48,602 nucleotides of DNA from a virus (IMGVR_UViG_3300031673_000084:1-48602), one strand, 5' to 3'; positions 14,700 through 48,335 are shown, counted from the first letter of the stretch. Numbers and translations: made by a program. The notes: generated by a model from the letters alone, not told the origin.

Positions 14700-16877
14700 A
14701 TGGCAACCGCAGCAGGCATCAAGGCCGGCAAAGCCTTCATTTACATCGAAGCCCTCGACAAAACCGGCTTCATCCTCAAGCGGATCGGGACCCGCCTCCG
14801 CAAGTGGGCCGGGGGAATCCAAAGCCTGGGGCAGGGTCTTGTTACCAAGTCCCTTGCCGCCATGATCCCCGCCGCCTTCTCCGTCAAAGCCTTTGCCGAC
14901 TTCGAGCACATGATGGCTTTCATTTCCACCATGCTCGAAGAGCCCGAGAAGCACATGGATTCCTTCCGGAAGGGAATCCGGCAGCTTGCCCGGGAGACCG
15001 GCAAGGACACGGCCGATATCGGCAAGGGTCTCTATGATATCCTCTCCGCCCAAGTCCCGCCCGAGAAGGCCCTGGACCTTTTACGTGAATCCTCCCGGCT
15101 TGCGGTCTCCGGCAATGCCGAAGTGGCCGATAGCGTCAAGGTGATGATTACCCTGATGGAGACCTACGGGGACCGGCTCAAGGGGGCCGGGGACGGGGCG
15201 GATTTCCTCATGGCTTGCGTCAAGCGGGGCCGGACCACCTTGGGGGAATTGGCCCCGGAGCTAGGGCGTGTAATCGCCCTATCCCGCGAATCGGGCCTTT
15301 CCCTGGAGGATATGGGGGCCTCCATTGCCCTCATGACCCGGGCCACGGGCCAGACCGACCTTGCCCTGACCGCCCTCCAGAACACCGCCAAGGAATTCAT
15401 CAAGCCTTCCAAGGAGGGTGCCGAGCTATGGAAGAAGAAATACGGGGAAGCCTTCGACACCACAACCTTGAAAGCCATCGGCTTCATGGGGGTGCTAAAA
15501 CGCCTCCATTCCATGACCATCGAGGAAGTGGGCATCATGTTCCCCAATATCCGGGCGGAGCGTGGCTTGCTCCCGGCAATCCGCAAGATCAAGGATTTCA
15601 ACGTTGACCTGGCAACCATGCGTAACCGGACCGGAGAGGCCGGGGTAGCCTTTGAGAAAATGTCCAAGAGCCCCCGTCTTGCCCTGGACAAGCTTTGGCA
15701 GGGGGTCAAGGACATAAACCGATCCATCGGCAAGGCCCTGGTAACCGCCCTGGAAGGTGCCTTCGGCCCCCTGGAAGACGTGATAACCGCTTGCGTCACC
15801 TGGATTGAGGCCAACCAGGCCGTTGTTACCACCCTTGCCGCCGTTGCCGCCGGGGTAGGCGTCCTGGGAATCGGCTTGCTCGGGTTGTCTGCTATCCTCA
15901 AGGCGGTAGCCCTGGGTTTCACGCTGGTTGGGGTGACCCTTATTGCCGTAAAAATTCTCTTTGTGGCTATTACTTCTCCCATCGGGCTCTTTGTTGCTGC
16001 TATCGCCGGGGCAATCGCCTTACTTTATCGATTCTCCGATTCCTTCCACAAGCTGGGTAACTCCATAGGCTCCAAGCTGGTTGCAAAGTTTGTCAACCTG
16101 AGGGACACGATCAAGTCAACCTTCGCCGGGCTCTCCCTGGCCCTTTCCCAGGGGGATATGCAGGCTGCCTGGGAAATTCTGACCATGGGGATGGAAATAG
16201 TCTGGCTGGAATTGGTGGACGGCCTCAAAGATATATGGGCTGGCTTTGAAGACTTCTTCCGGGGCGTTGTGGACGCGTTGAAGGAGGTTTGGGGCGGCTT
16301 TATACATGCCGTGGAAAACGTCCCGGAATTCCTGCTGGGGACCGCTGGGGCAAAAGGGCTACGGACGATGCTGGAGCAAGGCCGCCCGCTAAGCGAGGCC
16401 GCAACCTCTTTGAGCCGGGGTTACCGGAGGGCCCGGGGTGAACCCGCCGGCTTGACAAGAATTCCCATCGACCCCGCCAAGGCGGAGCGGGAACGGGTAT
16501 TGGCGGAAAAGCGGGCCGCATTGCAGGCTAGGATAGACGCACTAGGGCAAAAGGAGAGGGACAAGCGAAAATCCACCCTGGAGGCCCTCGGGCAATCCCT
16601 CAAGGGCGGGTTTCTCGCTACCGCCGAAGGTGCCAAGGGGAGGCTTGCCGATCTTCTGAGGCAGGCTTCCAAGGGTCAATTGAAAGGCCCTGAGGCAATC
16701 GCCCCTAAGCTCCTGGAGGCCCGATTCAAGGGAACCATCGAGGCCGCCCAACAGGCCCAAGAGAACCTGTACCGCGACAAAACGCAAGACAAGCAGCTTG
16801 AGGCCCAACAAGAGCAAATTACCTGGCTCAAGCGGATTGCCGACGCAATCGACAAGGTTTCCATCGAAGGGGTTTGA
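14700..16877 (+). CDS. tail tape measure protein
   Basis: 725 residues, determining tail length and passing into the cell during ejection. The N-terminal ~330 residues match the TP901-type minor tail/tape measure domain (FADFEHMMAFISTMLEEPEKHMDSFRKGIRQLARETGKDTADIGKGLYDILSAQ...LGELAPELGRVIALSRESGLSLEDMGASIALMTRATGQTDLALTALQNTAKEF). A cluster of hydrophobic helices lies at ~375-450 (TTLAAVAAGVGVLGIGLLGL...). The C-terminal third is charged and coiled-coil-like. The length would correspond to a tail of roughly 100 nm by the usual 1.5 angstrom per residue relation. Confidence 0.93.
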   Translation: MATAAGIKAGKAFIYIEALDKTGFILKRIGTRLRKWAGGIQSLGQGLVTKSLAAMIPAAFSVKAFADFEHMMAFISTMLEEPEKHMDSFRKGIRQLARETGKDTADIGKGLYDILSAQVPPEKALDLLRESSRLAVSGNAEVADSVKVMITLMETYGDRLKGAGDGADFLMACVKRGRTTLGELAPELGRVIALSRESGLSLEDMGASIALMTRATGQTDLALTALQNTAKEFIKPSKEGAELWKKKYGEAFDTTTLKAIGFMGVLKRLHSMTIEEVGIMFPNIRAERGLLPAIRKIKDFNVDLATMRNRTGEAGVAFEKMSKSPRLALDKLWQGVKDINRSIGKALVTALEGAFGPLEDVITACVTWIEANQAVVTTLAAVAAGVGVLGIGLLGLSAILKAVALGFTLVGVTLIAVKILFVAITSPIGLFVAAIAGAIALLYRFSDSFHKLGNSIGSKLVAKFVNLRDTIKSTFAGLSLALSQGDMQAAWEILTMGMEIVWLELVDGLKDIWAGFEDFFRGVVDALKEVWGGFIHAVENVPEFLLGTAGAKGLRTMLEQGRPLSEAATSLSRGYRRARGEPAGLTRIPIDPAKAERERVLAEKRAALQARIDALGQKERDKRKSTLEALGQSLKGGFLATAEGAKGRLADLLRQASKGQLKGPEAIAPKLLEARFKGTIEAAQQAQENLYRDKTQDKQLEAQQEQITWLKRIADAIDKVSIEGV

Positions 16878-16878
16878 A

Positions 16879-17775
16879 GTGCCTAAAATAATCGGGATGG
16901 AAGACGGCTCTTTTGAGGCCACGATTGACCTGGAAAAACGGGGCAATCTTACCGTCCGCCACAAGCGGTTTAGAAACACCTATATCATCCTTGGGGATGA
17001 TACTTCCCAGAGCGAAGAAGCCATCATTCTAACCTCAGGGCTTCCACCCCTATTCTACCCGTTGCGGGGGGCCTATTGTAAAGAGCAACGCCCTAAGGAA
17101 ATCAGCACGATAAGGCACCCGGTTACCGGGGTTGCCGCAATCCTCTGGGAGGTAGCTTGCGACTTCGATAGCTCCGTTGACCCGGACCAGAATCAGCCCC
17201 CCGAGGCCCAAGAGCCCGATGTTTCATGGGGCGGGGAGGTTGGGGAGGAGCTATTGGAAAAGGATGCCGTAACCGGAGACCCGATCCAAACGGATGCCGA
17301 AGAGCCGATTCTTCTAATGACACCCGTGGTGTTTCCCATCCTCAAGATAGAGCGGTATGAATTATGGCCCTTTGATCCCGATACCATGCTGGATTATACC
17401 CAGCACACCAATTCCGCCACCTTCTGGGGCGCTCCGCCCGGTTGCGCCCTGATGCTCCCAATGGAGACCAGCACCAAGCAAATCATCGAAGAGACTGCTT
17501 ATGTCCGGGTGACTTATCAAATCAAGTTCAAGATGAAAAAGGAGGCCGGGGTTTTCAAGGAAGATACCTGGAAGGCCCGGGTTTTGCACCACGGGTTCAA
17601 GTATCGTCCCAAGCCGGGCCCGCCCGTAATCTATCAGGACCGCCATGGGAACCCGGCAACCGTTAATCTTACTGTTGGTGGGTTCAAGCTTCCGGATGGG
17701 AACACACCGGAATATAAGGAATTCAATCGGCTCTATAAAGCCAACTTCAACAACCTGTCTCTTGGGCCTTTCTGA
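16879..17775 (+). CDS. distal tail protein, hypothetical family
   Basis: 298 residues from a GTG two bases after the tape measure stop; GAAGGGG lies 6 bases upstream, which decides the start. The sequence (NTYIILGDDTSQSEEAIILTSGLPPLFYPLRGAYCKEQRPKEISTIRHPVTGVAAILWEVACDFDSS) matches a family found just after the tape measure in planctomycete-type phages. The next segment is variable, then PVVFPILKIERYELWPF and a beta-rich C-terminus. It is likely part of the tail tip; the biochemical role is not known. Confidence 0.65.
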   Translation: MPKIIGMEDGSFEATIDLEKRGNLTVRHKRFRNTYIILGDDTSQSEEAIILTSGLPPLFYPLRGAYCKEQRPKEISTIRHPVTGVAAILWEVACDFDSSVDPDQNQPPEAQEPDVSWGGEVGEELLEKDAVTGDPIQTDAEEPILLMTPVVFPILKIERYELWPFDPDTMLDYTQHTNSATFWGAPPGCALMLPMETSTKQIIEETAYVRVTYQIKFKMKKEAGVFKEDTWKARVLHHGFKYRPKPGPPVIYQDRHGNPATVNLTVGGFKLPDGNTPEYKEFNRLYKANFNNLSLGPF

Positions 17776-17796: not shown

Positions 17797-18858
17797 ATGC
17801 CCGTCTACGGATTCAAAGATAAGCAGACCGCCCAAGTCCTCAAGCAGGTGGCCCGGGAGCGAACCACCCAAGCCCGGGGTTACCTGGGATGGGGACCGAC
17901 TTGGGATACTTGGGCAACGCCCGATGGCAAGGTTCAGCTTCCCGGCCGCAAGCTCAAGGAGCACCGGGCCTATATCGTGGTGGCCCAATCGATCATCCCC
18001 GGGGCCACGGTCGTCAACGGCAAGCTCTACCTCGGGGTGGGGACCGCTTGCGTCTACCGCCGCAACCAGGAACACGGGACCCGGATAGACCAGCAAAAGG
18101 ACGAAGAGACAAGTGAAGCCGTCAAGGTTACCGTCTACAATTTCTGCCCCGAGCCAATCGAGCCTATCGGCTCTTGTGACAAGATAGAGTGCAATGATGC
18201 CGTCCTTTTCGTTGTGCAGGACCAGTGGGGCGACCTTTATATAGTGGAAAAGTGCCCCGTGGGGGAAGGGTCCTCGGTTAGCTTCTCCGAAAGCTCCGCC
18301 TCTTTATCCGTTTCCGGCCCCCCCTCTGCCTCCGGTTCCCCTTCTGGTTCCCCTTCCGCCTCCGGTCCCCCTTCTATCTCCGGCTCCGCCTCGGGCCCGA
18401 CTTCCATGATAGAATCGGAATCCGCCGCCCCTAGCGGTTCCCCCTCGGGCCCAACCTTGGATGTATTAGTGTGCCCGCCCTATATCAAGGGCCCCCATAC
18501 ACTTTGCTTTCCCCAGAAGCGGGTACACTACCCCCCGGGGACCTGGTTTGAAGACATACCCGAAACCTGCTTCTACATTTGCTGCCTGGGGTCCGGTAGC
18601 TCGCAAGCCTCCAGCAGTAGTGCCTCCAAGCCCTCCGGGGCCTCCAAGCCCTCCGGGGTTTCTGGGGGTAACGGTGGCTCAAAAATCTCGGGGAGCCCGG
18701 GTATTTCATCGGGTGAGGGTCAATCGAGTATTCCCATTATATCCGGTGGTGGCTCGGGCTTATTAAGCGGTAGCGAGGGTGGAAGCCCTAGCAGTAGCAA
18801 GGGAAGCGAGAGCAGTAGAAGCTCCGCTGGCAATGGATATGGCGGGTCGCCAAGCTAA
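17797..18858 (+). CDS. Ser/Gly/Pro-rich tail tip or fibre protein
   Basis: 353 residues. Residues 1-155 are an ordered domain (VYGFKDKQTAQVLKQVARERTTQ...YIVVAQSIIPGATVVNGKLYLGVGTACVYRR). Residues ~160-220 are Ser/Pro/Gly repeats (SGSPSGSPSASGPPSISGSASG). A cysteine-containing segment (~225-268, LDVLVCPPYIKGPHTLCFPQ...ETCFYICCLGS) is followed by another ~85 Ser/Gly-rich residues to the end. Such serine-rich tracts are common in planctomycete phage tail proteins and could be glycosylation targets, notable because three glycan-modifying enzymes follow. Receptor binding is a plausible but unproven role. Confidence 0.65.
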   Translation: MPVYGFKDKQTAQVLKQVARERTTQARGYLGWGPTWDTWATPDGKVQLPGRKLKEHRAYIVVAQSIIPGATVVNGKLYLGVGTACVYRRNQEHGTRIDQQKDEETSEAVKVTVYNFCPEPIEPIGSCDKIECNDAVLFVVQDQWGDLYIVEKCPVGEGSSVSFSESSASLSVSGPPSASGSPSGSPSASGPPSISGSASGPTSMIESESAAPSGSPSGPTLDVLVCPPYIKGPHTLCFPQKRVHYPPGTWFEDIPETCFYICCLGSGSSQASSSSASKPSGASKPSGVSGGNGGSKISGSPGISSGEGQSSIPIISGGGSGLLSGSEGGSPSSSKGSESSRSSAGNGYGGSPS

Positions 18859-20479
18859 AGCCGTAAGGCAGGAATGGAGGAATTGCATACAACCCCGAGG
18901 GCCGGGAACGGAGTTGAAGACCCTTCTAAGCTCTCTTGGAATCAGGGAGGGTAATTGCAAATGCACCCACTATGCGGCGGAAATGAACGTAAGGGGTCTG
19001 GCATGGTGTATAAACCATAGGGAACAAATCGTGGCCCGGTTGCGGAAGGCCGCAATTGGGCGGAGATTTCCGTTTTTTACCTTTGCCGCCAGAAGGCTTG
19101 TCAACACCGCTATCAATCGGAGTAGGGGAACAATGCAATGGGATAATTGTTTCAGGAAGGTCTTTTGCGTCAACCTTGGTAGGCGGAAAGACCGCTGGCA
19201 ACGCTTCAAGGCCGGGCTCCCCGGGGATTGGCCCTTCGCCCCTGTCGCCCGGGTATCTGCGGTTGATGGGAAGCGGGTGCCCGTCCCCGATTGGTGGACC
19301 GCCGGCCCGGGGGCCTGGGGGTGTTACCGCACCCACCTAAGAATCATCGAGAATTGCATCAATGGGGGTGTTGAATCCGTCTTGATCCTGGAAGACGATG
19401 CCCTTTTCTGCCCGGACTTCACCCGCCGGGTCAAGGACTTTCTCCGGAGGGTCCCGAAAGATTGGGGTATGCTCTACCTCGGGGGGCAGCATCTTTTTAT
19501 AAACAAGTCCCCACCTAAGGAAATCGTCCCTGGAGTCTTTCAGCCCTACAATGTCAACCGTACCCACGCCTTTGCCCTTCGCGGAAAGATGCTCCGGGTA
19601 GTGTATAAGCATCTTCTCCGCAAGGATTGGATGCAAGGGCAGCATATCGACCACCATCTTGGGCGATTACACCAACGCCGGGAGCATCCCATTTACTGCC
19701 CCGGGGAATGGTTGGTGGGACAGGCGGAAGGCCAGAGTAACATATCCGGCCGGAACCCCGGAGACCGGTTTTGGCCCCCCGCCGAAAGCATTGCTTCCAC
19801 CGATCCGGCTACCCGACCCTTCCTTGCCGTGATTGGGCTCCATAGCTCCGGCTCTTCGGCCCTTGCCGGGGTCCTGTATCACTTGGGATGCCATTTGGGG
19901 AACAAGCTGGGGGGTTACTATGGTAATGACCCCGAGGGCTCTTGTGGGTTTGAAGCAGTGGGCCTTGCTGAACTATGCGAAAGGGCTATCCCCTTCCCTA
20001 CGGTGGATTATGCCCGGAAACGGGGACAAATCTGGTCCGCCCTCCGGGGATGGATCAATGAGAAGCGGAGGGAAGCCGCCAAGGCCGGGACGATTGCCGC
20101 CGGCAAATATCCCCAGCTTTGCCGGATGGGGAATCAGCTTGTGAGCATTTGCGGGGAACACCTTTATCTTCTCCATATCGACCGGCCCCTGGAGGAATCC
20201 ATAGAGAGCCTTGCCCGCCGCACCAAGAAGAGTCGGGAGGAAGCGGCTGCCCACCAAAAGTGGTTGGAAGAGGGCAAGCGGCAACTGTTGGCCCGGGTTC
20301 CTAAAGAGCGACAGTTGACGGTCGCTTATGCAGACCTGGTTTCCTCCCCAGAGAAAGAGGCCCGCCGGGTTGCCGAATTCCTTTCCCGGATCGGTTATCA
20401 GTCAGAGGAAACCCGGATCAAGAAGGCCGCCGGTTACATTAACCCGTCCAAGAGGCACGTTGCCTTGGAGCCCGTCTGA
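18833..20479 (+). CDS. GT25 glycosyltransferase-sulfotransferase fusion
   Basis: 548 residues in three parts. Residues ~20-100 form a small Cys-containing domain (PGTELKTLLSSLGIREGNCKCTHYAAEMN...CINHREQIVARLR) often seen in planctomycete phage proteins. Residues ~101-320 resemble glycosyltransferase family 25 (KVFCVNLGRRKDRW, GAWGCYRTHLRIIENCINGG, LILEDDALF with EDD 187-189, and a C-terminal QHIDHHLG). Residues ~328-548 resemble a sulfotransferase, with the PAPS-loop-like GLHSSGSSALAGVLYHLG and a 3'-phosphate-side HIDRPLEESIESLARR. An internal in-frame ATG at 19133 with AGTAGGGGAAC before it could give the GT-sulfotransferase alone. The N-terminus overlaps the Ser-rich gene. Confidence 0.75.
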   Translation: MDMAGRQAKAVRQEWRNCIQPRGPGTELKTLLSSLGIREGNCKCTHYAAEMNVRGLAWCINHREQIVARLRKAAIGRRFPFFTFAARRLVNTAINRSRGTMQWDNCFRKVFCVNLGRRKDRWQRFKAGLPGDWPFAPVARVSAVDGKRVPVPDWWTAGPGAWGCYRTHLRIIENCINGGVESVLILEDDALFCPDFTRRVKDFLRRVPKDWGMLYLGGQHLFINKSPPKEIVPGVFQPYNVNRTHAFALRGKMLRVVYKHLLRKDWMQGQHIDHHLGRLHQRREHPIYCPGEWLVGQAEGQSNISGRNPGDRFWPPAESIASTDPATRPFLAVIGLHSSGSSALAGVLYHLGCHLGNKLGGYYGNDPEGSCGFEAVGLAELCERAIPFPTVDYARKRGQIWSALRGWINEKRREAAKAGTIAAGKYPQLCRMGNQLVSICGEHLYLLHIDRPLEESIESLARRTKKSREEAAAHQKWLEEGKRQLLARVPKERQLTVAYADLVSSPEKEARRVAEFLSRIGYQSEETRIKKAAGYINPSKRHVALEPV

Positions 20480-21771
20480 TGAGCGTACCCGTTTGGACCT
20501 ATTGGGAGGGTAAACGCCCCCCAATTATTGACTTGTGCCTGGAGAGTATCACCCGGCACAATCCCGCCGCCCGGGTCCTTGACCCCAAAACCATCCGGGA
20601 GCTAGGCGGGGGCCACGTCCTGGAAGCCACCGAAGGCTTGCTGCCTGCAATCCGTTCCGACCTTATCCGCTTTTGGCTACTCAAGACCTTTGGAGGCGTT
20701 TGGATAGACTCCGATAGCGTGGCCACCCTCCCCCTGGATTTCCTGGGGGAGATACCCCATTATGACTTCATTGCTATTTATAATAAATTTCAGAAACAGG
20801 GATGGGGGACAAACGGACTGATTGCATCCCCTGCCGCTTGTGCCCGCGGAAGCCCTTTTGCGGAGGCTTGTTTTACTTATTGCTTCAAGCTGGTAAAGCG
20901 GTATAAGCAAGGCGAGCGATTGAGCTACGGAATAACCTCGGTAGGGACTACTTCCCGATTTTTCAAACTCGGTCGTTACCGGGTCTTGCGTATGGAGCAC
21001 TGGAGGTATAACCCGGTCCCGTGGCCTGGTGTAAAAACGGTTATGACTAGTGAGGGGGCTTCGCACCATTGGGAATATGGCCCACACTGGAATCCCAATG
21101 CTTGCCTGTACCATTTGACTAACACGGTAGCCAAACCCTTGCATTCTTCTACCCGGGAACAAATCCTGGGGGGTAAAACCCTCTTGGCGTTTATCCTTCA
21201 AAAGGCCCTCGGGCTCACCCCGGCCGTTCCTCTCCGGGCTTGGGAAATCCTCCAAAGGTTCCCCCGAGACCGTCCTATCCGCGGGGTGGAGATCGGCACC
21301 TATTACGGAGGCAATGCCCGGAATCTCTTGCAGCAAGCCCGCAAGCTTCATCTTACTTGTGTCGATCCATGGGGGAACCTGCAAAGCCCCGAATACCGGG
21401 CGACGGGTGATTCCATGGCGTTTCTGTCCAACGCCCAATGGAACCGCCTTTACACTACCTGTTGCCGCCGAGTGGCCTTTGCCGGGAACCGGGTGGAATT
21501 GTGGCGGACTACCTCGGAAAAAGCCTTTTTGCGGATGCCTCCCCGGAGCCTGGACCTTGTTTTTATTGACGGCAATCATTCTTATCCGGCCGTCAAGCGG
21601 GACCTTCGTTGGCGCGAAAAGATCAAGCCCGGGGGATTGCTTTGTGGGCATGATTACAACCACCCCCGGGGATCAAAGTACCGGGTAACGCAAGCCCTTG
21701 ATGAATTCATTATGGAAACGGGGCTCCGCCTGGAATTGGGACAGGATACCACTTGGTTTATCCGTTTGTAA
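20479..21771 (+). CDS. glycosyltransferase-methyltransferase fusion
   Basis: 430 residues, overlapping the previous stop by one base (TGATG). Residues 1-235 resemble capsular-polysaccharide/GT32-type glycosyltransferases: VWTYWEGKRPPIIDLCLESITRHNP, then AIRSDLIRFWLLKTFGGVWIDSDS with the metal-binding DSD (77-79). Residues ~260-430 are a class I SAM-dependent methyltransferase of the Methyltransf_24 type: RGVEIGTYYGGNARNLL (SAM loop), TCVDPWG, LDLVFIDGNHSYPAVKRDLRWREKIKPGGLLCGHDY. The enzyme may add a sugar and methylate the same glycan. Confidence 0.82.
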   Translation: MSVPVWTYWEGKRPPIIDLCLESITRHNPAARVLDPKTIRELGGGHVLEATEGLLPAIRSDLIRFWLLKTFGGVWIDSDSVATLPLDFLGEIPHYDFIAIYNKFQKQGWGTNGLIASPAACARGSPFAEACFTYCFKLVKRYKQGERLSYGITSVGTTSRFFKLGRYRVLRMEHWRYNPVPWPGVKTVMTSEGASHHWEYGPHWNPNACLYHLTNTVAKPLHSSTREQILGGKTLLAFILQKALGLTPAVPLRAWEILQRFPRDRPIRGVEIGTYYGGNARNLLQQARKLHLTCVDPWGNLQSPEYRATGDSMAFLSNAQWNRLYTTCCRRVAFAGNRVELWRTTSEKAFLRMPPRSLDLVFIDGNHSYPAVKRDLRWREKIKPGGLLCGHDYNHPRGSKYRVTQALDEFIMETGLRLELGQDTTWFIRL

Positions 21772-21780
21772 GGGGATGGC

Positions 21781-22134
21781 ATGAAAAAGCGAAGTCCTAA
21801 TAAAGACTGTAAATCCACGGTTGGGAATGGGTCAAAAACACCGGGCGGGGGAATCACCCGGGCCGCGGAAATACTGGCCCGGGAATTGGAATCCAGGATC
21901 GCCTTGAAGCTCCGGCAGGCTTGCGTCAATGGCTCCGTCCTAGCTTGCCTCTTCTGGCGTAACGGAGACCGGGTGCAATTATGGTTCAAGGCCCATGACT
22001 TCCCGGTTGCGGATTATGATTCCTGCATTGATATTCTGGATGAAAAGCTACGGGAGGATCGGAAGCGGGTCCTTGCGGCAAATGAGCTAACCAGGAAACC
22101 AAGACCAAAGCCGAAGAAGAAGCCCAAGAGCTAG
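21781..22134 (+). CDS. hypothetical basic protein in glycan cluster
   Basis: 117 residues after AAGGGGATGGC. Lys-rich at both ends (MKKRSPNKDCKS and RKPRPKPKKKPKS), with a central helical/beta segment (RAAEILARELESRIALKLRQACVNGSVLACLFWRNGDRVQLWFKAHDFP). No family recognised. It lies between two glycosyltransferase genes. Confidence 0.55.
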   Translation: MKKRSPNKDCKSTVGNGSKTPGGGITRAAEILARELESRIALKLRQACVNGSVLACLFWRNGDRVQLWFKAHDFPVADYDSCIDILDEKLREDRKRVLAANELTRKPRPKPKKKPKS

Positions 22135-22139
22135 ATAAG

Positions 22140-22898
22140 GTGTTTCGACCCCTGATTATCGTGGTCCGCCAATCCATGCGATGGGATGGCCCCGAGGAAT
22201 TGGCCCGCCAAAACCTCTATGGCAAGCCCGTTGTAAGACTCATTATCAATCCACGGGTCCAAGCCTTTTGGAAGCGGTATTTCCGCCTCCCTTTCCATGA
22301 ATTCCGCCGCCGGGTGCGGGATATAGCCCGCAACAATCTCCAAGCCGTGGCCGGCAGCCGGCTCTTCCTGAGCGTTGCCGCCTTCAACCAAGCCCTCCGG
22401 GCCGGGCAAATCCCCCCCGGTTCCCTGGTGGTTCCCATCGACGACGACGATTGGCTTGCCCCGGACCTGGGAAGCCTCTTGCAGCCCCCGGCCGGGTCCG
22501 GGCTCTTGTGGCAATCCTCCCGGGTTGCCTGCAATCGGCCTGTCCGGGATATCGACAAGGGCAGGCCCCTTTGCCGGACAAATAATAGTGCAATTACCTT
22601 GGGCTATCTTGCGGGGCTTCCTAACCATGATCGGAGCATGGTCCTTGCCTATCACTGGGAGGCCGGCAAACGGCTTGCCGGGAAGCTCGGATACCTCCCG
22701 ATCCCTGGTAGCGTGATTGTGAGGCACCCGGCCAGCATAACCCAACTATCCATGCTGGCCCGTCGATACCTGAACCGCCCCCGGGCCTTCCGCCAATATC
22801 TGCCGACCATCCGGCACCGTTTGCCGATCCCCGAGGGCTTGGAATGGTGCCGTCCTTATTACACCCGCCTCCTTGCCCTCTACCGGGAGGCGGTCTAA
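22140..22898 (+). CDS. glycosyltransferase-like protein
   Basis: 252 residues from GTG 22140, five bases after the preceding stop. The segment PGSLVVPIDDDDWLAPDLGSLL (DDDD 101-104) is the nucleotide-sugar/metal-binding pattern of GT2/GT-A-like enzymes. The preceding FRRRVRDIARNNLQAVAGSRLFLSVAAFNQAL looks like the usual helix before it. The C-terminus is basic and aromatic (QYLPTIRHRLPIPEGLEWCRPYYTRL). It closes the glycan cluster; the acceptor is unknown. Confidence 0.65.
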   Translation: MFRPLIIVVRQSMRWDGPEELARQNLYGKPVVRLIINPRVQAFWKRYFRLPFHEFRRRVRDIARNNLQAVAGSRLFLSVAAFNQALRAGQIPPGSLVVPIDDDDWLAPDLGSLLQPPAGSGLLWQSSRVACNRPVRDIDKGRPLCRTNNSAITLGYLAGLPNHDRSMVLAYHWEAGKRLAGKLGYLPIPGSVIVRHPASITQLSMLARRYLNRPRAFRQYLPTIRHRLPIPEGLEWCRPYYTRLLALYREAV

Positions 22899-23245: not shown

Positions 23246-23273
23246 TTGACACGCCTCGATATCCCGAGATAAT
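23246..23273 (+). promoter_or_regulatory. sigma-70-like promoter of the early operon
   Basis: TTGACA (23246-23251), 16-base spacer, GATAAT (23268-23273). It is by far the best sigma-70 match noticed in the window. It faces the MutS-domain gene, with an untranslated leader of about 135 bases. Confidence 0.7.
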
Positions 23274-23414: not shown

Positions 23415-23957
23415 ATGAAAGCAAAAGAAATCCAAGAGGGCGGAAGGTACGTTGCCAAGGTAAGCAACCGTCTTACCGTGGTTCGCGTCCTCAAGATCGA
23501 AAAGAAATGGAACGGGCTCTTCGGCACCACGGAGCGGGTACAGACCGTCTACCGGGTCAAGAATGAGCGGACCGGGCGGGAAACCACCTTCCGGAGCCCC
23601 AGCAAATTCCGCCGCCCCGCCGGCAAGCCCAAGACGGAGCAACCGGAGGGCAAAGGGCCCGAGGCCATCAAGGCTTTCCTGCAACGGGTCACGGGCTACA
23701 AAGACCCCCTTCTGGAGAAATGGGAGAAAGCCAAGGCACAATTCCCCGAGGCCCTTCTGCTGATTCGGATGGGAGACTTTGCCGAAGCCTTTTTCGACGA
23801 TGCCAAGACGTTTGCCCGGGTTTGCAATTTGTCTATGACACAACGTAGGGACGGCACCCCGTTGTGTGGGGTCCCTTGGCACGCCAAGGAAGCCTATATC
23901 AAGCGACTTGTCGCGGCCGGTATCCGCGTGGCCCTTTGTGAGGAAGTGAAACCGTGA
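23415..23957 (+). CDS. stand-alone MutS domain I protein
   Basis: 180 residues. Residues ~1-70 are a small basic beta domain (GGRYVAKVSNRLTVVRVLKIEKKW...TVYRVKNERTGRETTFRSPSKFR). Residues ~95-180 match MutS domain I: DPLLEKWEKAKAQFPEALLLIRMGDFAEAFFDDAKTFARVCNLSMTQRR, then PLCGVPWHAKEAYIKRLVAAGIRVALCEEV. The mismatch-wedging F-x-E motif is kept as F122-A123-E124. Clamp, connector and ATPase domains are missing. It could bind mismatched, bulged or damaged DNA, or interfere with host MutS. First gene of the operon under the 23246 promoter. Confidence 0.85.
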   Translation: MKAKEIQEGGRYVAKVSNRLTVVRVLKIEKKWNGLFGTTERVQTVYRVKNERTGRETTFRSPSKFRRPAGKPKTEQPEGKGPEAIKAFLQRVTGYKDPLLEKWEKAKAQFPEALLLIRMGDFAEAFFDDAKTFARVCNLSMTQRRDGTPLCGVPWHAKEAYIKRLVAAGIRVALCEEVKP

Positions 23958-23969
23958 CCAATCACCACC

Positions 23970-24003
23970 GGGCCCCGGGGTGAATACCTCGGGGCCCTCT
24001 TTT
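23970..24003 (+). terminator. rho-independent terminator-like hairpin
   Basis: An 11-bp stem with one G.T pair (23970-23980 with 23987-23997), 6-base loop TGAATA, followed by TCTTTT. It lies between the MutS-domain gene and the gene at 24018, so it may only partly attenuate transcription of the rest of the operon. Confidence 0.7.
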
Positions 24004-27407: not shown

Positions 27408-27632
27408 ATGCCTACCCCTCAACAAGGATTCGTGATTGACGGGGCTTCCTATTCGGAAGATGTCGCCCGTATGGTCTTGGGGAAACGGGGCCCGATAAGC
27501 CGCCGCACCCTGGACCGCTACATAGAGAAGGGCCTTCGATTTTCTAAGATCGGGGAGCAACGCTGGTTCTCGGGTCTCAATATCCGGCTCTTTATCGAGA
27601 GCTACGGCAGTTTTCATGGGGACGAGCAATGA
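27408..27632 (+). CDS. excisionase-like small DNA-binding protein
   Basis: 74 residues after ATAAGGCTTG. Contains RGPISRRTLDRYIEKGLRFSKIGEQRWFSGLNIRLFIESY, which reads as a MerR/Xis-type winged helix: helix, RTLDRYI recognition helix, wing around KIGEQRWF. It overlaps the integrase ATG (ATGA). By fold and position it is a likely recombination directionality factor. Confidence 0.65.
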   Translation: MPTPQQGFVIDGASYSEDVARMVLGKRGPISRRTLDRYIEKGLRFSKIGEQRWFSGLNIRLFIESYGSFHGDEQ

Positions 27633-28723
27633 AAGTCTATGTCATTCCACGTAAGGGGAAAAAGTATCTGATGCTCCGATGGATCGACCCCAAGACGGGC
27701 AAGCCCCGGGAGCGGTCTTCCAAGACCACCCGCCGCCGGGAGGCGGAGCGGTTAGCCGAAAGGCTTTCCCGGGAGATTGAAGAGGGCTTCCACACCAAGG
27801 CGGTTAGCTGGTCTGTATTCCGCACCCGCTATGAACGGGAACACCTCTCCCAACTGGCGGGAAATACCCTCGGGCAATGGACCACCACCGCTAACCACCT
27901 GGAAGCCCTCGAAAACCCGCAAACGCTGGGGGCGGTTGACTCCGCCATGGTTTCCCGCTTCCAAGCCGGCTTGACCGGCCGGGGTCTCCGTCCCGCTTCC
28001 GTTGCCGCCTACCTCGGGCACCTTCGGGTTGCCCTCCGGTGGGCAAAACGTCTCGGGCTTATCCCGGAGGTCCCGTTCGTTGAAATGCCCAAACGGGCCC
28101 GGGGTGCCTCCAAATTCGCCCGCTCCCGGGCGATTGTCGGAGAGGAATTGGACCGGGTTCTTTGGGCCGCCGAAGCCGAACGCCCCCGGGACTTCAACCG
28201 CTGGCAAGATTTCCTCCGGGGCCTGTATCATTCCGGCTTGCGGGTAGGGGAATTGCTGATTCTATCTTGGCACCCGCAAGCCGCCTTATGGATTGATCCC
28301 TCCGGGGCTTATCCCTTAATCCGTGTTACCACGGAAGGGGAGAAGGCCCACCAGGATCGTTGGCAGCCGGTGACCCCGGAATTCTGGGGTCTGGTCAAGC
28401 ACAAGGCCCCCCGGGGCCGGGTCTTCCCTTTGGACTCTCTGGCAACCGGCAAGCCGCTGCGGATTAAAACCGTGGTTCGGATCATTTCCAGGATCGGCCG
28501 CCGGGCGGGAGTGATAACCGACCCGGCAAGCGGAAAGTGTGCCACTTCCCATGATATCGGTCGCCGGGCCCTCGGGACCCGCCTTGCCTCCCGGTTGACA
28601 CCTCAGGAACACGCCAAATGGATGCGACATGCCTCGATAAATACAACCATGCGATATTATTACCAGCCCGAGGCCATTGCTTTATCCCGAAGAATCTGGG
28701 AGAGCCGATCCCCGGGCTTGTGA
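27629..28723 (+). CDS. int: tyrosine recombinase (phage integrase)
   Basis: 364 residues. N-terminal arm-binding part (MKVYVIPRKGKKYLMLRWIDPKTGKPRERSSKTTRRREAERLAERLSREIEEG), a core-binding helical domain (~70-165) and a C-terminal catalytic domain. Catalytic residues are visible: Arg in YHSGLRVGELL, Lys region near VTTEGEKAHQDRWQPV, HxxR in SHDIGRRALGTR, His in KWMRHASINTT and Tyr in MRYYYQP. It integrates the phage by recombination between attP and host attB; the attP-like tRNA fragment lies 75 bases downstream. The stop codon lies inside the first arm-type repeat. Confidence 0.95.
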   Translation: MKVYVIPRKGKKYLMLRWIDPKTGKPRERSSKTTRRREAERLAERLSREIEEGFHTKAVSWSVFRTRYEREHLSQLAGNTLGQWTTTANHLEALENPQTLGAVDSAMVSRFQAGLTGRGLRPASVAAYLGHLRVALRWAKRLGLIPEVPFVEMPKRARGASKFARSRAIVGEELDRVLWAAEAERPRDFNRWQDFLRGLYHSGLRVGELLILSWHPQAALWIDPSGAYPLIRVTTEGEKAHQDRWQPVTPEFWGLVKHKAPRGRVFPLDSLATGKPLRIKTVVRIISRIGRRAGVITDPASGKCATSHDIGRRALGTRLASRLTPQEHAKWMRHASINTTMRYYYQPEAIALSRRIWESRSPGL

Positions 28724-47657: not shown

Positions 47658-48335
47658 ATGATCCTAGTGAAACCTAGCACGGAGATTATGTTTCTTCGGG
47701 ATGGGGGCCATATCCTCGAAAGGATCGAATCCGCCGGGCGGACCTGCTACAAATCGGAAGGCCAAATCTCTGAAGCATCGGCCGTCCGGTTTTGCCAACA
47801 CCTTTTGAAGCGGGGGCATGAATCGGTTATTGAGCATGAATACGCAACCGTCCGATTCGTGGTTGACCGCGGGGTGTCCCATGAGCTAGTCCGCCACCGT
47901 TTGGCATCCTATTCCCAAGAGTCAACCCGCTACTGTAACTACCGGGGCGGAGTAACCTTCGTGATTCCGCCTTGGGTGGGTGTAGAGCCGGGAGGCTATT
48001 TTAAGGAAGCCTGTTCACGGCAAGACAGACTCAAGTATCCAGACCTTCAATGGCTTGTCGCCATGTTAAACGCGGAGGTATGGTATAAGCATCTTTTGGA
48101 GGCGGGGTGGACACCCCAGCAAGCTCGATCTATTCTGCCCAATTCCCTCAAGACGGAGATTGTTGTTACGGCCAATATGCGGGAGTGGAGGCATATCTTC
48201 CGTCTTCGTTGTGCCAATGCGGCACACCCGCAAATGTGGGAGGTAATGCGTCCTTTGCTTGCGGAGTTCCAAGAGCGGGTGCCCGTCCTCTTCGATGATA
48301 TCTGTTATGCGGTATCCACCACGAACACCGGATAA
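47658..48335 (+). CDS. thyX: flavin-dependent thymidylate synthase
   Basis: 225 residues after AAAAAGGAGAAAGGGG. The diagnostic ThyX motif is present as RHRLASYSQESTRY (79-92), followed by CNYRGGVTFVIPPW. LPNSLKTEIVVTANMREWRHIFRLRCANAAHPQMWEVMRPLL provides the conserved C-terminal part. It makes dTMP from dUMP with FAD and methylenetetrahydrofolate, securing thymidine for phage DNA. Length matches the family. Confidence 0.95.
   Translation: MILVKPSTEIMFLRDGGHILERIESAGRTCYKSEGQISEASAVRFCQHLLKRGHESVIEHEYATVRFVVDRGVSHELVRHRLASYSQESTRYCNYRGGVTFVIPPWVGVEPGGYFKEACSRQDRLKYPDLQWLVAMLNAEVWYKHLLEAGWTPQQARSILPNSLKTEIVVTANMREWRHIFRLRCANAAHPQMWEVMRPLLAEFQERVPVLFDDICYAVSTTNTG

What the first reader, a model, noticed from the sequence alone, without database searches (positions are those of the whole stretch)
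17797..22898. Candidate self-contained tail-glycan modification system
Directly after a Ser/Gly/Pro-rich tail protein come a GT25-sulfotransferase fusion, a glycosyltransferase-methyltransferase fusion and a third glycosyltransferase, with overlapping or short spacers. Seen: gene order, motifs, serine tracts. Known: serine-rich tracts are common O-glycosylation targets, and GT25, sulfotransferase and Methyltransf_24 modify glycans. Inferred: the phage builds a sulfated, methylated glycan on its own tail fibre, or remodels the host surface to block superinfection.
Basis: partly seen in the sequence, partly recalled or inferred. Interest (0 to 1): 0.85.

Follow-up and report, generated by a model that had tools for sequence, protein, structure and literature searches.

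The report
Phage tail glycan-sulfation gene cassette
A virus that probably infects planctomycete bacteria carries, right behind a serine-rich tail gene, enzymes that look able to build a sulfated and methylated sugar chain; relatives keep the same pairing, so it probably sugar-coats its own tail, which nobody has yet shown in the laboratory.

Summary
The observation largely holds. Window 17797-21771 encodes a serine-rich protein, a GT25-sulfotransferase (GT25-ST) fusion and a Caps_synth-type glycosyltransferase-Methyltransf_24 fusion. The "third glycosyltransferase" (22140) matches no library.

All seven IMG/VR contigs sharing the neighbouring tail protein keep the order tape measure, tail, Ser-rich, GT25-ST, GT-MT (one is cut inside GT-MT). 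GT25-ST also sits in about 20 planctomycete prophage loci after far more Ser-rich tail proteins (35-38 Ser per 40) whose heads show no detectable homology to the window's. Of GT25-ST tail loci, 15 of 16 are Ser-rich, against 4 of 15 prophages picked blindly by terminase (p=0.0002; by lineage 5/6, p=0.046). The 16 leave out five loci judged by eye to lie outside tail modules.

Best reading (0.6): the phage glycosylates and sulfates its own Ser-rich tail arm. Host-surface modification is the main rival. "Self-contained" is not supported: PAPS, SAM, sugar nucleotides and perhaps the first sugar must come from the host. Nothing biochemical is shown.

The parts
14700..16877 (+). tail tape measure protein (context)
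   Evidence: Pfam PhageMin_Tail E 6e-23 and many PHROGs tape measure families
16879..17775 (+). conserved tail-module protein between tape measure and Ser-rich protein (context); GTG start
   Evidence: 40-55% identical in all 7 relatives; no family hit; start inferred from the alignment A6 and sequence
17797..18858 (+). Ser/Gly/Pro-rich putative tail protein: conserved head (residues 1 to about 147) and variable Ser-rich arm (29% Ser)
   Evidence: position after tape measure and tail protein; no usable structure (AlphaFold pLDDT 45)
18779..20479 (+). N-terminal Cys-containing 'GPGT' domain + GT25 glycosyltransferase + sulfotransferase fusion; true start uncertain
   Evidence: Pfam; 48-60% identical in 8 relatives with invariant EDD, GAWGC, GxHxSGSS and RPxxxS motifs; closest solved structure procollagen galactosyltransferase 1, E 2e-9
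18887..19129 (+). 'GPGT...C-x-C...M...C' domain, found elsewhere as a separate protein right after tail-tip proteins
   Evidence: alignment A5, profile and viral scan
20479..21771 (+). Caps_synth/Gly_transf_sug-type glycosyltransferase + Methyltransf_24 fusion
   Evidence: Pfam; 39-45% identical full length in 6 relatives with invariant DxD and SAM-site residues
21781..22134 (+). small basic protein of unknown function, conserved member of the cassette
   Evidence: 25-32% identical in 6 relatives at the same place
22140..22898 (+). putative glycosyltransferase (unverified), found only in this phage; L050/L051 have an FkbM-type methyltransferase further down instead
   Evidence: no family hit; 'IDDDDW' motif by eye; FkbM in L051

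Best explanation
A late-operon glycosylation cassette of a temperate phage of planctomycetes. The Ser-rich protein is a tail or tail-tip component whose conserved head joins the virion and whose disordered Ser-rich arm is the acceptor (inferred). In the cytoplasm, before or during tail assembly, the GT25 domain adds or extends a sugar on the arm and its fused sulfotransferase sulfates that glycan with PAPS; the Caps_synth-type transferase adds a further sugar and its fused SAM-dependent domain methylates it (domains and their conserved active-site motifs shown; acceptor, order and products inferred). Accessory enzymes vary between relatives (second GTs, FkbM methyltransferase, pyruvyl or Stealth transferases), so the outer glycan probably differs from phage to phage while the GT25-ST core stays. 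The likely result is a charged sugar brush on the tail that affects adsorption or stability (speculative).
For: Same gene order in 7 of 7 relatives, with GT25-ST more conserved (48-60%) than tape measure or Ser-rich protein. The Ser tract starts at the same place in all eight proteins and keeps its composition while the sequence diverges. GT25-ST also follows 35-38/40 Ser tail proteins in about 20 planctomycete loci, and a window-like terminase lies mostly 16-26 kb, several times 19 kb, from GT25-ST on the same contig (18.6 kb in the window). The Ser-rich proteins there have heads with no detectable homology to the window's, which suggests repeated pairing. GT25-ST tail loci 15/16 Ser-rich against 4/15 blind prophages. 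The Ser-rich blind prophages L213 and L215 carry other clear glycosyltransferases next to the tail gene. Enzymes have no membrane segment. No forward promoter-like site inside the cassette, the best one just after it.
Against: No glycan, virion or enzyme data. GT25-ST also occurs at bacterial loci with no recognisable tail module, and GT25 alone in tail modules without Ser-rich proteins. The tree-aware test of ST fusion against Ser-rich neighbour has only 2-3 independent pairs and cannot reach significance. 15/16 rests on leaving out five loci after looking at them; with them it is 15/21. The virion role of the Ser-rich protein rests on position only; its fold could not be predicted. The enzyme that would start on Ser is not identified.
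Confidence: 0.6

Rival explanations
1. The enzymes modify a host surface glycan (lysogenic conversion), for instance to block superinfection, and sit beside the tail genes because that is the end of the late operon next to the attachment site.
For: The phage is temperate by its integrase (27629-28723); the cassette lies between the late genes and the integrase, and in Rhodopirellula L066 only about 3 kb separates it from what looks by sequence like the host EF-Tu gene. GT25 and Caps_synth families act on LPS and capsule (family descriptions); GT25-ST occurs as bacterial genes outside tail modules.
Against: Consistent direct adjacency to Ser-rich tail proteins of at least two head families with no detectable homology; overlapping or tightly spaced genes, no internal forward promoter-like site; no membrane protein in the cassette.
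Confidence: 0.22
2. Ser-rich tracts are mere flexible linkers or spacers, and the glycan genes are unrelated cargo that hitchhikes with this tail module.
For: 4/15 blind planctomycete prophages have Ser-rich tail proteins without GT25-ST; the adjacent GPGT domain occurs in tail modules with no glycan genes; ST-fused loci share ancestry, so the counts are not independent.
Against: Ser-rich state is enriched at GT25-ST tail loci (p 0.046 by lineage), different glycan enzymes are found by different Ser-rich proteins, and order is kept over large divergence.
Confidence: 0.15

Closest known systems
Mycobacteriophage virion glycosylation (Che8, Corndog, Myrna; Freeman et al. 2023, known here through PMC12363180 and PMC11256854)
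   Same: phage-encoded glycosyltransferases that modify the phage's own structural proteins (capsid and tail tube there)
   Different: here the proposed acceptor is a Ser-rich tail protein, the core enzyme is a GT25-sulfotransferase fusion and a methyltransferase is present; no glycan shown here; homology of the enzymes to theirs was not tested
Streptococcal serine-rich repeat adhesin loci (Fap1 and relatives, PMC5207161)
   Same: a Ser-rich acceptor gene next to a cluster of glycosyltransferase genes that build its glycan stepwise
   Different: cell-wall adhesins, not phage tails; no sulfotransferase in the Fap1 cluster described there; the window's enzymes fall in other glycosyltransferase families
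Procollagen galactosyltransferase 1 (COLGALT1, GT25)
   Same: closest solved relative of the GT25 domain (E 2e-9); from general knowledge it glycosylates a protein side chain
   Different: acts on hydroxylysine of collagen (general knowledge); only the catalytic core aligns; no sulfotransferase fused
Chlorovirus glycan enzymes such as A064R and A111/114R (PMC7826918, PMC9614988)
   Same: multidomain virus-encoded enzymes that build glycans on a virion protein
   Different: giant algal viruses, N-linked glycans on a capsid protein; from general knowledge no sulfotransferase fusion

Membership tests
Phage-encoded virion glycosylation system (mycobacteriophage type) | glycosyltransferase genes carried by the phage | tested here: met
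   GT25 and Caps_synth domains in the tail region of the virus record
Phage-encoded virion glycosylation system (mycobacteriophage type) | glycan covalently bound to a virion protein | not testable with these tools
   needs mass spectrometry of virions
Phage-encoded virion glycosylation system (mycobacteriophage type) | loss of the transferase removes the glycan | not testable with these tools
   needs a mutant
GT25 glycosyltransferase | Glyco_transf_25 profile above cut-off, with acidic EDD motif and GAxGC motif | tested here: met
   PF01755 28.1 bits, cut-off 24; E205 D206 D207 and G178-C182 invariant in 9 proteins
PAPS-dependent sulfotransferase | Sulfotransferase profile with PAPS-binding loop and 3'-phosphate motif | tested here: met
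   window 25.8 bits, just under the cut-off of 27; homologues pass (PF13469 27.9 and PF00685 23.9 bits in L066); GxHxSGSS-type loop and RPxxxS conserved. Activity not testable
Serine-rich repeat adhesin glycosylation locus | Ser-rich acceptor next to glycosyltransferase genes | tested here: met
Serine-rich repeat adhesin glycosylation locus | GtfA/GtfB-type initiating transferases (GT4 family) | tested here: not met
   no Glycos_transf_1 or other GT4 match in the cassette proteins
Serine-rich repeat adhesin glycosylation locus | accessory Sec export and cell-wall anchoring | not tested
   no such gene was looked for beyond the annotated window genes
Serotype-conversion (gtrABC-like) cassette | membrane flippase and membrane-bound transferase | tested here: not met
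   no membrane segment in the cassette proteins: best 19-residue hydropathy 1.51, against 2.36 for the tape measure

The most novel reading that the evidence does not exclude
Phages of planctomycetes share a widespread, modular tail-sulfoglycosylation system: Ser-rich tail arms, up to almost pure poly-Ser and built on unrelated tail proteins, are decorated by a constant GT25-sulfotransferase core plus swappable finishing enzymes, giving each phage its own sulfated glycan brush. Their hosts are rich in sulfatases (PMC4807772, PMC6388578), so the glycan could take part in host recognition or protection.
Probability: 0.45. Interest if true: 0.78.

Novelty: new variant of a known kind. Interest (0 to 1): 0.62.

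Why it matters
Glycosylation of phage virion proteins is known from a few mycobacteriophages; a sulfated virion glycan was not found in the papers searched (few searches, open-access library only). If true, many prophages in cultured planctomycetes carry the system, so it can be tested with induced virions, and the GT25-sulfotransferase fusion offers a marker to find more. It also bears on how phages recognise planctomycetes, for which few phage studies turned up.

Tried and rejected
Single-sequence scans of viral contigs with GT25-ST, tape measure and tail protein found nothing; two-sequence alignments did. First genome-contig scan with two sequences failed, the nine-sequence alignment worked. 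Structure prediction of the Ser-rich protein (pLDDT 45) and of 22140 (pLDDT 36) was too poor for a fold search. No phage record in INPHARED matches the Ser-rich protein, 22140 or the GPGT-domain protein. Homology of the window's Ser-protein head to the small tail proteins of L012-L041, suspected by eye, was not supported (hhalign probability 1.7). GT25-ST fusion against Ser-rich neighbour: 15/21 versus 5/18, p=0.010, but not independent on the tree. Excess positive charge of the enzymes as a sign of a polyanionic product: within the window's background, dropped. DNA modification: PHROGs calls the methyltransferase 'DNA methyltransferase', but the Methyltransf_24 match and the fusion to a sugar transferase speak against it. 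The GPGT domain as a docking domain for glycosyltransferases: it also occurs without them, so dropped.

Full report
What is there. The window is an IMG/VR virus record of 48,602 bases with terminase, portal, capsid-protease and tape-measure genes on the left and integrase, helicase, polymerase and primase genes on the right. Between them, on the + strand, lie the tape measure (14700-16877), a conserved tail-module protein (16879-17775), the Ser-rich protein (17797-18858), a GT25-sulfotransferase fusion (to 20479), a Caps_synth/Methyltransf_24 fusion (20479-21771), a small basic protein (21781-22134) and 22140-22898. The domains are right for the first two enzymes; the third has no match in Pfam, PHROGs or NCBIfam and no meaningful one in the PDB.

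The Ser-rich protein. Its first 147 residues hold 2% Ser and are conserved; the rest holds 29% Ser, 17% Gly and 12% Pro, with all six Ser codons in use. In seven relatives the Ser tract begins at the same place, has 21-35% Ser, varies in length from 97 to 308 residues and hardly aligns: composition is kept, sequence is not. A virion role is inferred from position only; AlphaFold gave no usable model.

The enzymes. GT25-ST is 48-60% identical in eight relatives, with the GT25 acidic motif, the GAWGC motif, the core of the sulfotransferase loop (GxHxSGSS) and the RPxxxS motif invariant. The closest solved structure to the GT25 part is procollagen galactosyltransferase 1, a transferase that acts on a protein (its acceptor is general knowledge). 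The GT-MT fusion keeps its DxD and SAM-site residues in seven proteins. So the enzymes look intact; activity is not shown.

Conservation of the cassette. A search with the neighbouring tail protein, blind to the glycan genes, returned seven contigs, all with tape measure, tail protein, Ser-rich protein, GT25-ST and GT-MT in this order; one (L002/L056) is cut inside the GT-MT gene. The small basic gene follows in the six contigs long enough to show it. 22140 is found only in the window; L051 has an FkbM methyltransferase after the small gene and L050 a similar gene by sequence. Full-length GT-MT fusions were found only in these same phages.

Host and wider spread. Nearly all of 55 genome loci encoding relatives of GT25-ST are labelled Planctomycetota or genera of that phylum. 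About 20 show tape measure, a long tail protein with 35-38 Ser per 40 residues, a separate GPGT-domain protein, and GT25-ST. On contigs of these genomes a terminase related to the window's lies mostly 16-26 kb, several times about 19 kb, from GT25-ST, against 18.6 kb in the window, so these are prophages of similar layout. Accessory genes there differ: two family-2 glycosyltransferases (L066), polysaccharide pyruvyltransferase and Gly_transf_sug (L059), Stealth-type transferase (L110), Methyltransf_24 proteins (L058). In an even draw of 392 genomes of the phylum, ten had any match and two had full-length GT25-ST, so the system is not universal.

Is the pairing more than chance? The Ser-rich proteins of the window lineage and of the L066 type have heads without detectable homology, so the pairing is not simply inherited with one tail protein. 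As a control, planctomycete prophages were picked by terminase only; of 15 with a recognised tape measure, four had a Ser-rich tail protein and none GT25. Of 21 non-redundant GT25-ST loci, 15 were Ser-rich; five of the six others lie outside a recognisable tail module, judged by reading their neighbours after the fact, leaving 15/16 against 4/15 (p=0.0002), or 5/6 lineages against 4/15 (p=0.046). In the blind sample two of the four Ser-rich prophages have clear other glycosyltransferases next to the tail gene and two only sub-threshold MptE-like matches, against one of eleven others; only part of the genes of those others was scanned. Strictly this is p=0.15, leniently 0.004.

Limits. GT25 without sulfotransferase occurs in another phage group's tail modules with no Ser-rich protein, and the tree-aware test of fusion against Ser-richness has too few independent pairs. 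The cassette lies near the integrase and, in L066, near the prophage end, a usual place for lysogenic-conversion genes, so host-surface modification stays open.

Verdict. A phage-borne tail glycosylation cassette with sulfotransferase is the best reading, a new variant of phage virion glycosylation. Works-like parallels are the Ser-rich adhesin loci of streptococci (PMC5207161) and mycobacteriophage virion glycosylation (PMC12363180, PMC11256854); membership in the former fails on the initiating enzymes, and in the latter cannot be decided without a virion glycan.

Noticed in passing
L036-L049, window 18887-19129: A ~80-residue 'GPGT...CxC...C' domain of unknown function follows tail-tip proteins in many phages, with or without glycan genes; sometimes a separate protein with an extra Cys-rich N terminus, sometimes fused to transferases.
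   Followed up: partly
L008/L009, L048/L049: Other phages with nearly pure poly-Ser tracts (39-40 of 40) in a protein directly before a GPGT-domain gene and GT25, or a GPGT-domain protein with an apparent GT-A-like half (by eye); radical SAM and methyltransferase genes follow in L008.
   Followed up: partly
L010-L035: Another phage group with a GT25 gene a few genes after the tail-tip proteins and no Ser-rich protein; in several a protein starting 'MTSWDFFDTL' with no Pfam match follows.
   Followed up: partly
G001 (genome of L066, Rhodopirellula rubra CECT 8075): Four copies of GT25-ST in one genome; four terminase loci related to the window's lie on the same two contigs.
   Followed up: partly
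L213, L215, L218, L220: Blindly sampled prophages with Ser-rich tail proteins and other sugar-related genes next to them (GT2, GT4, radical SAM; weak MptE-like matches in L213, L218 and L220).
   Followed up: partly
window 23415-23957: Short protein with a MutS domain I only (Pfam E 2e-21), no other MutS part recognised.
   Followed up: no
window 23246-23273 and 23970-23997: Best promoter-like site of the region (11 of 12) just after the cassette and a strong terminator-like hairpin after the next gene.
   Followed up: no
window 47658-48335: ThyX-type thymidylate synthase at the right end of the record.
   Followed up: no
window 18779-18905: Start of the GT25 gene is unclear: no clear ribosome-binding-like site at GTG 18779 or ATG 18833; a GGAGG lies shortly before an ATA codon near where relatives start.
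   Followed up: partly
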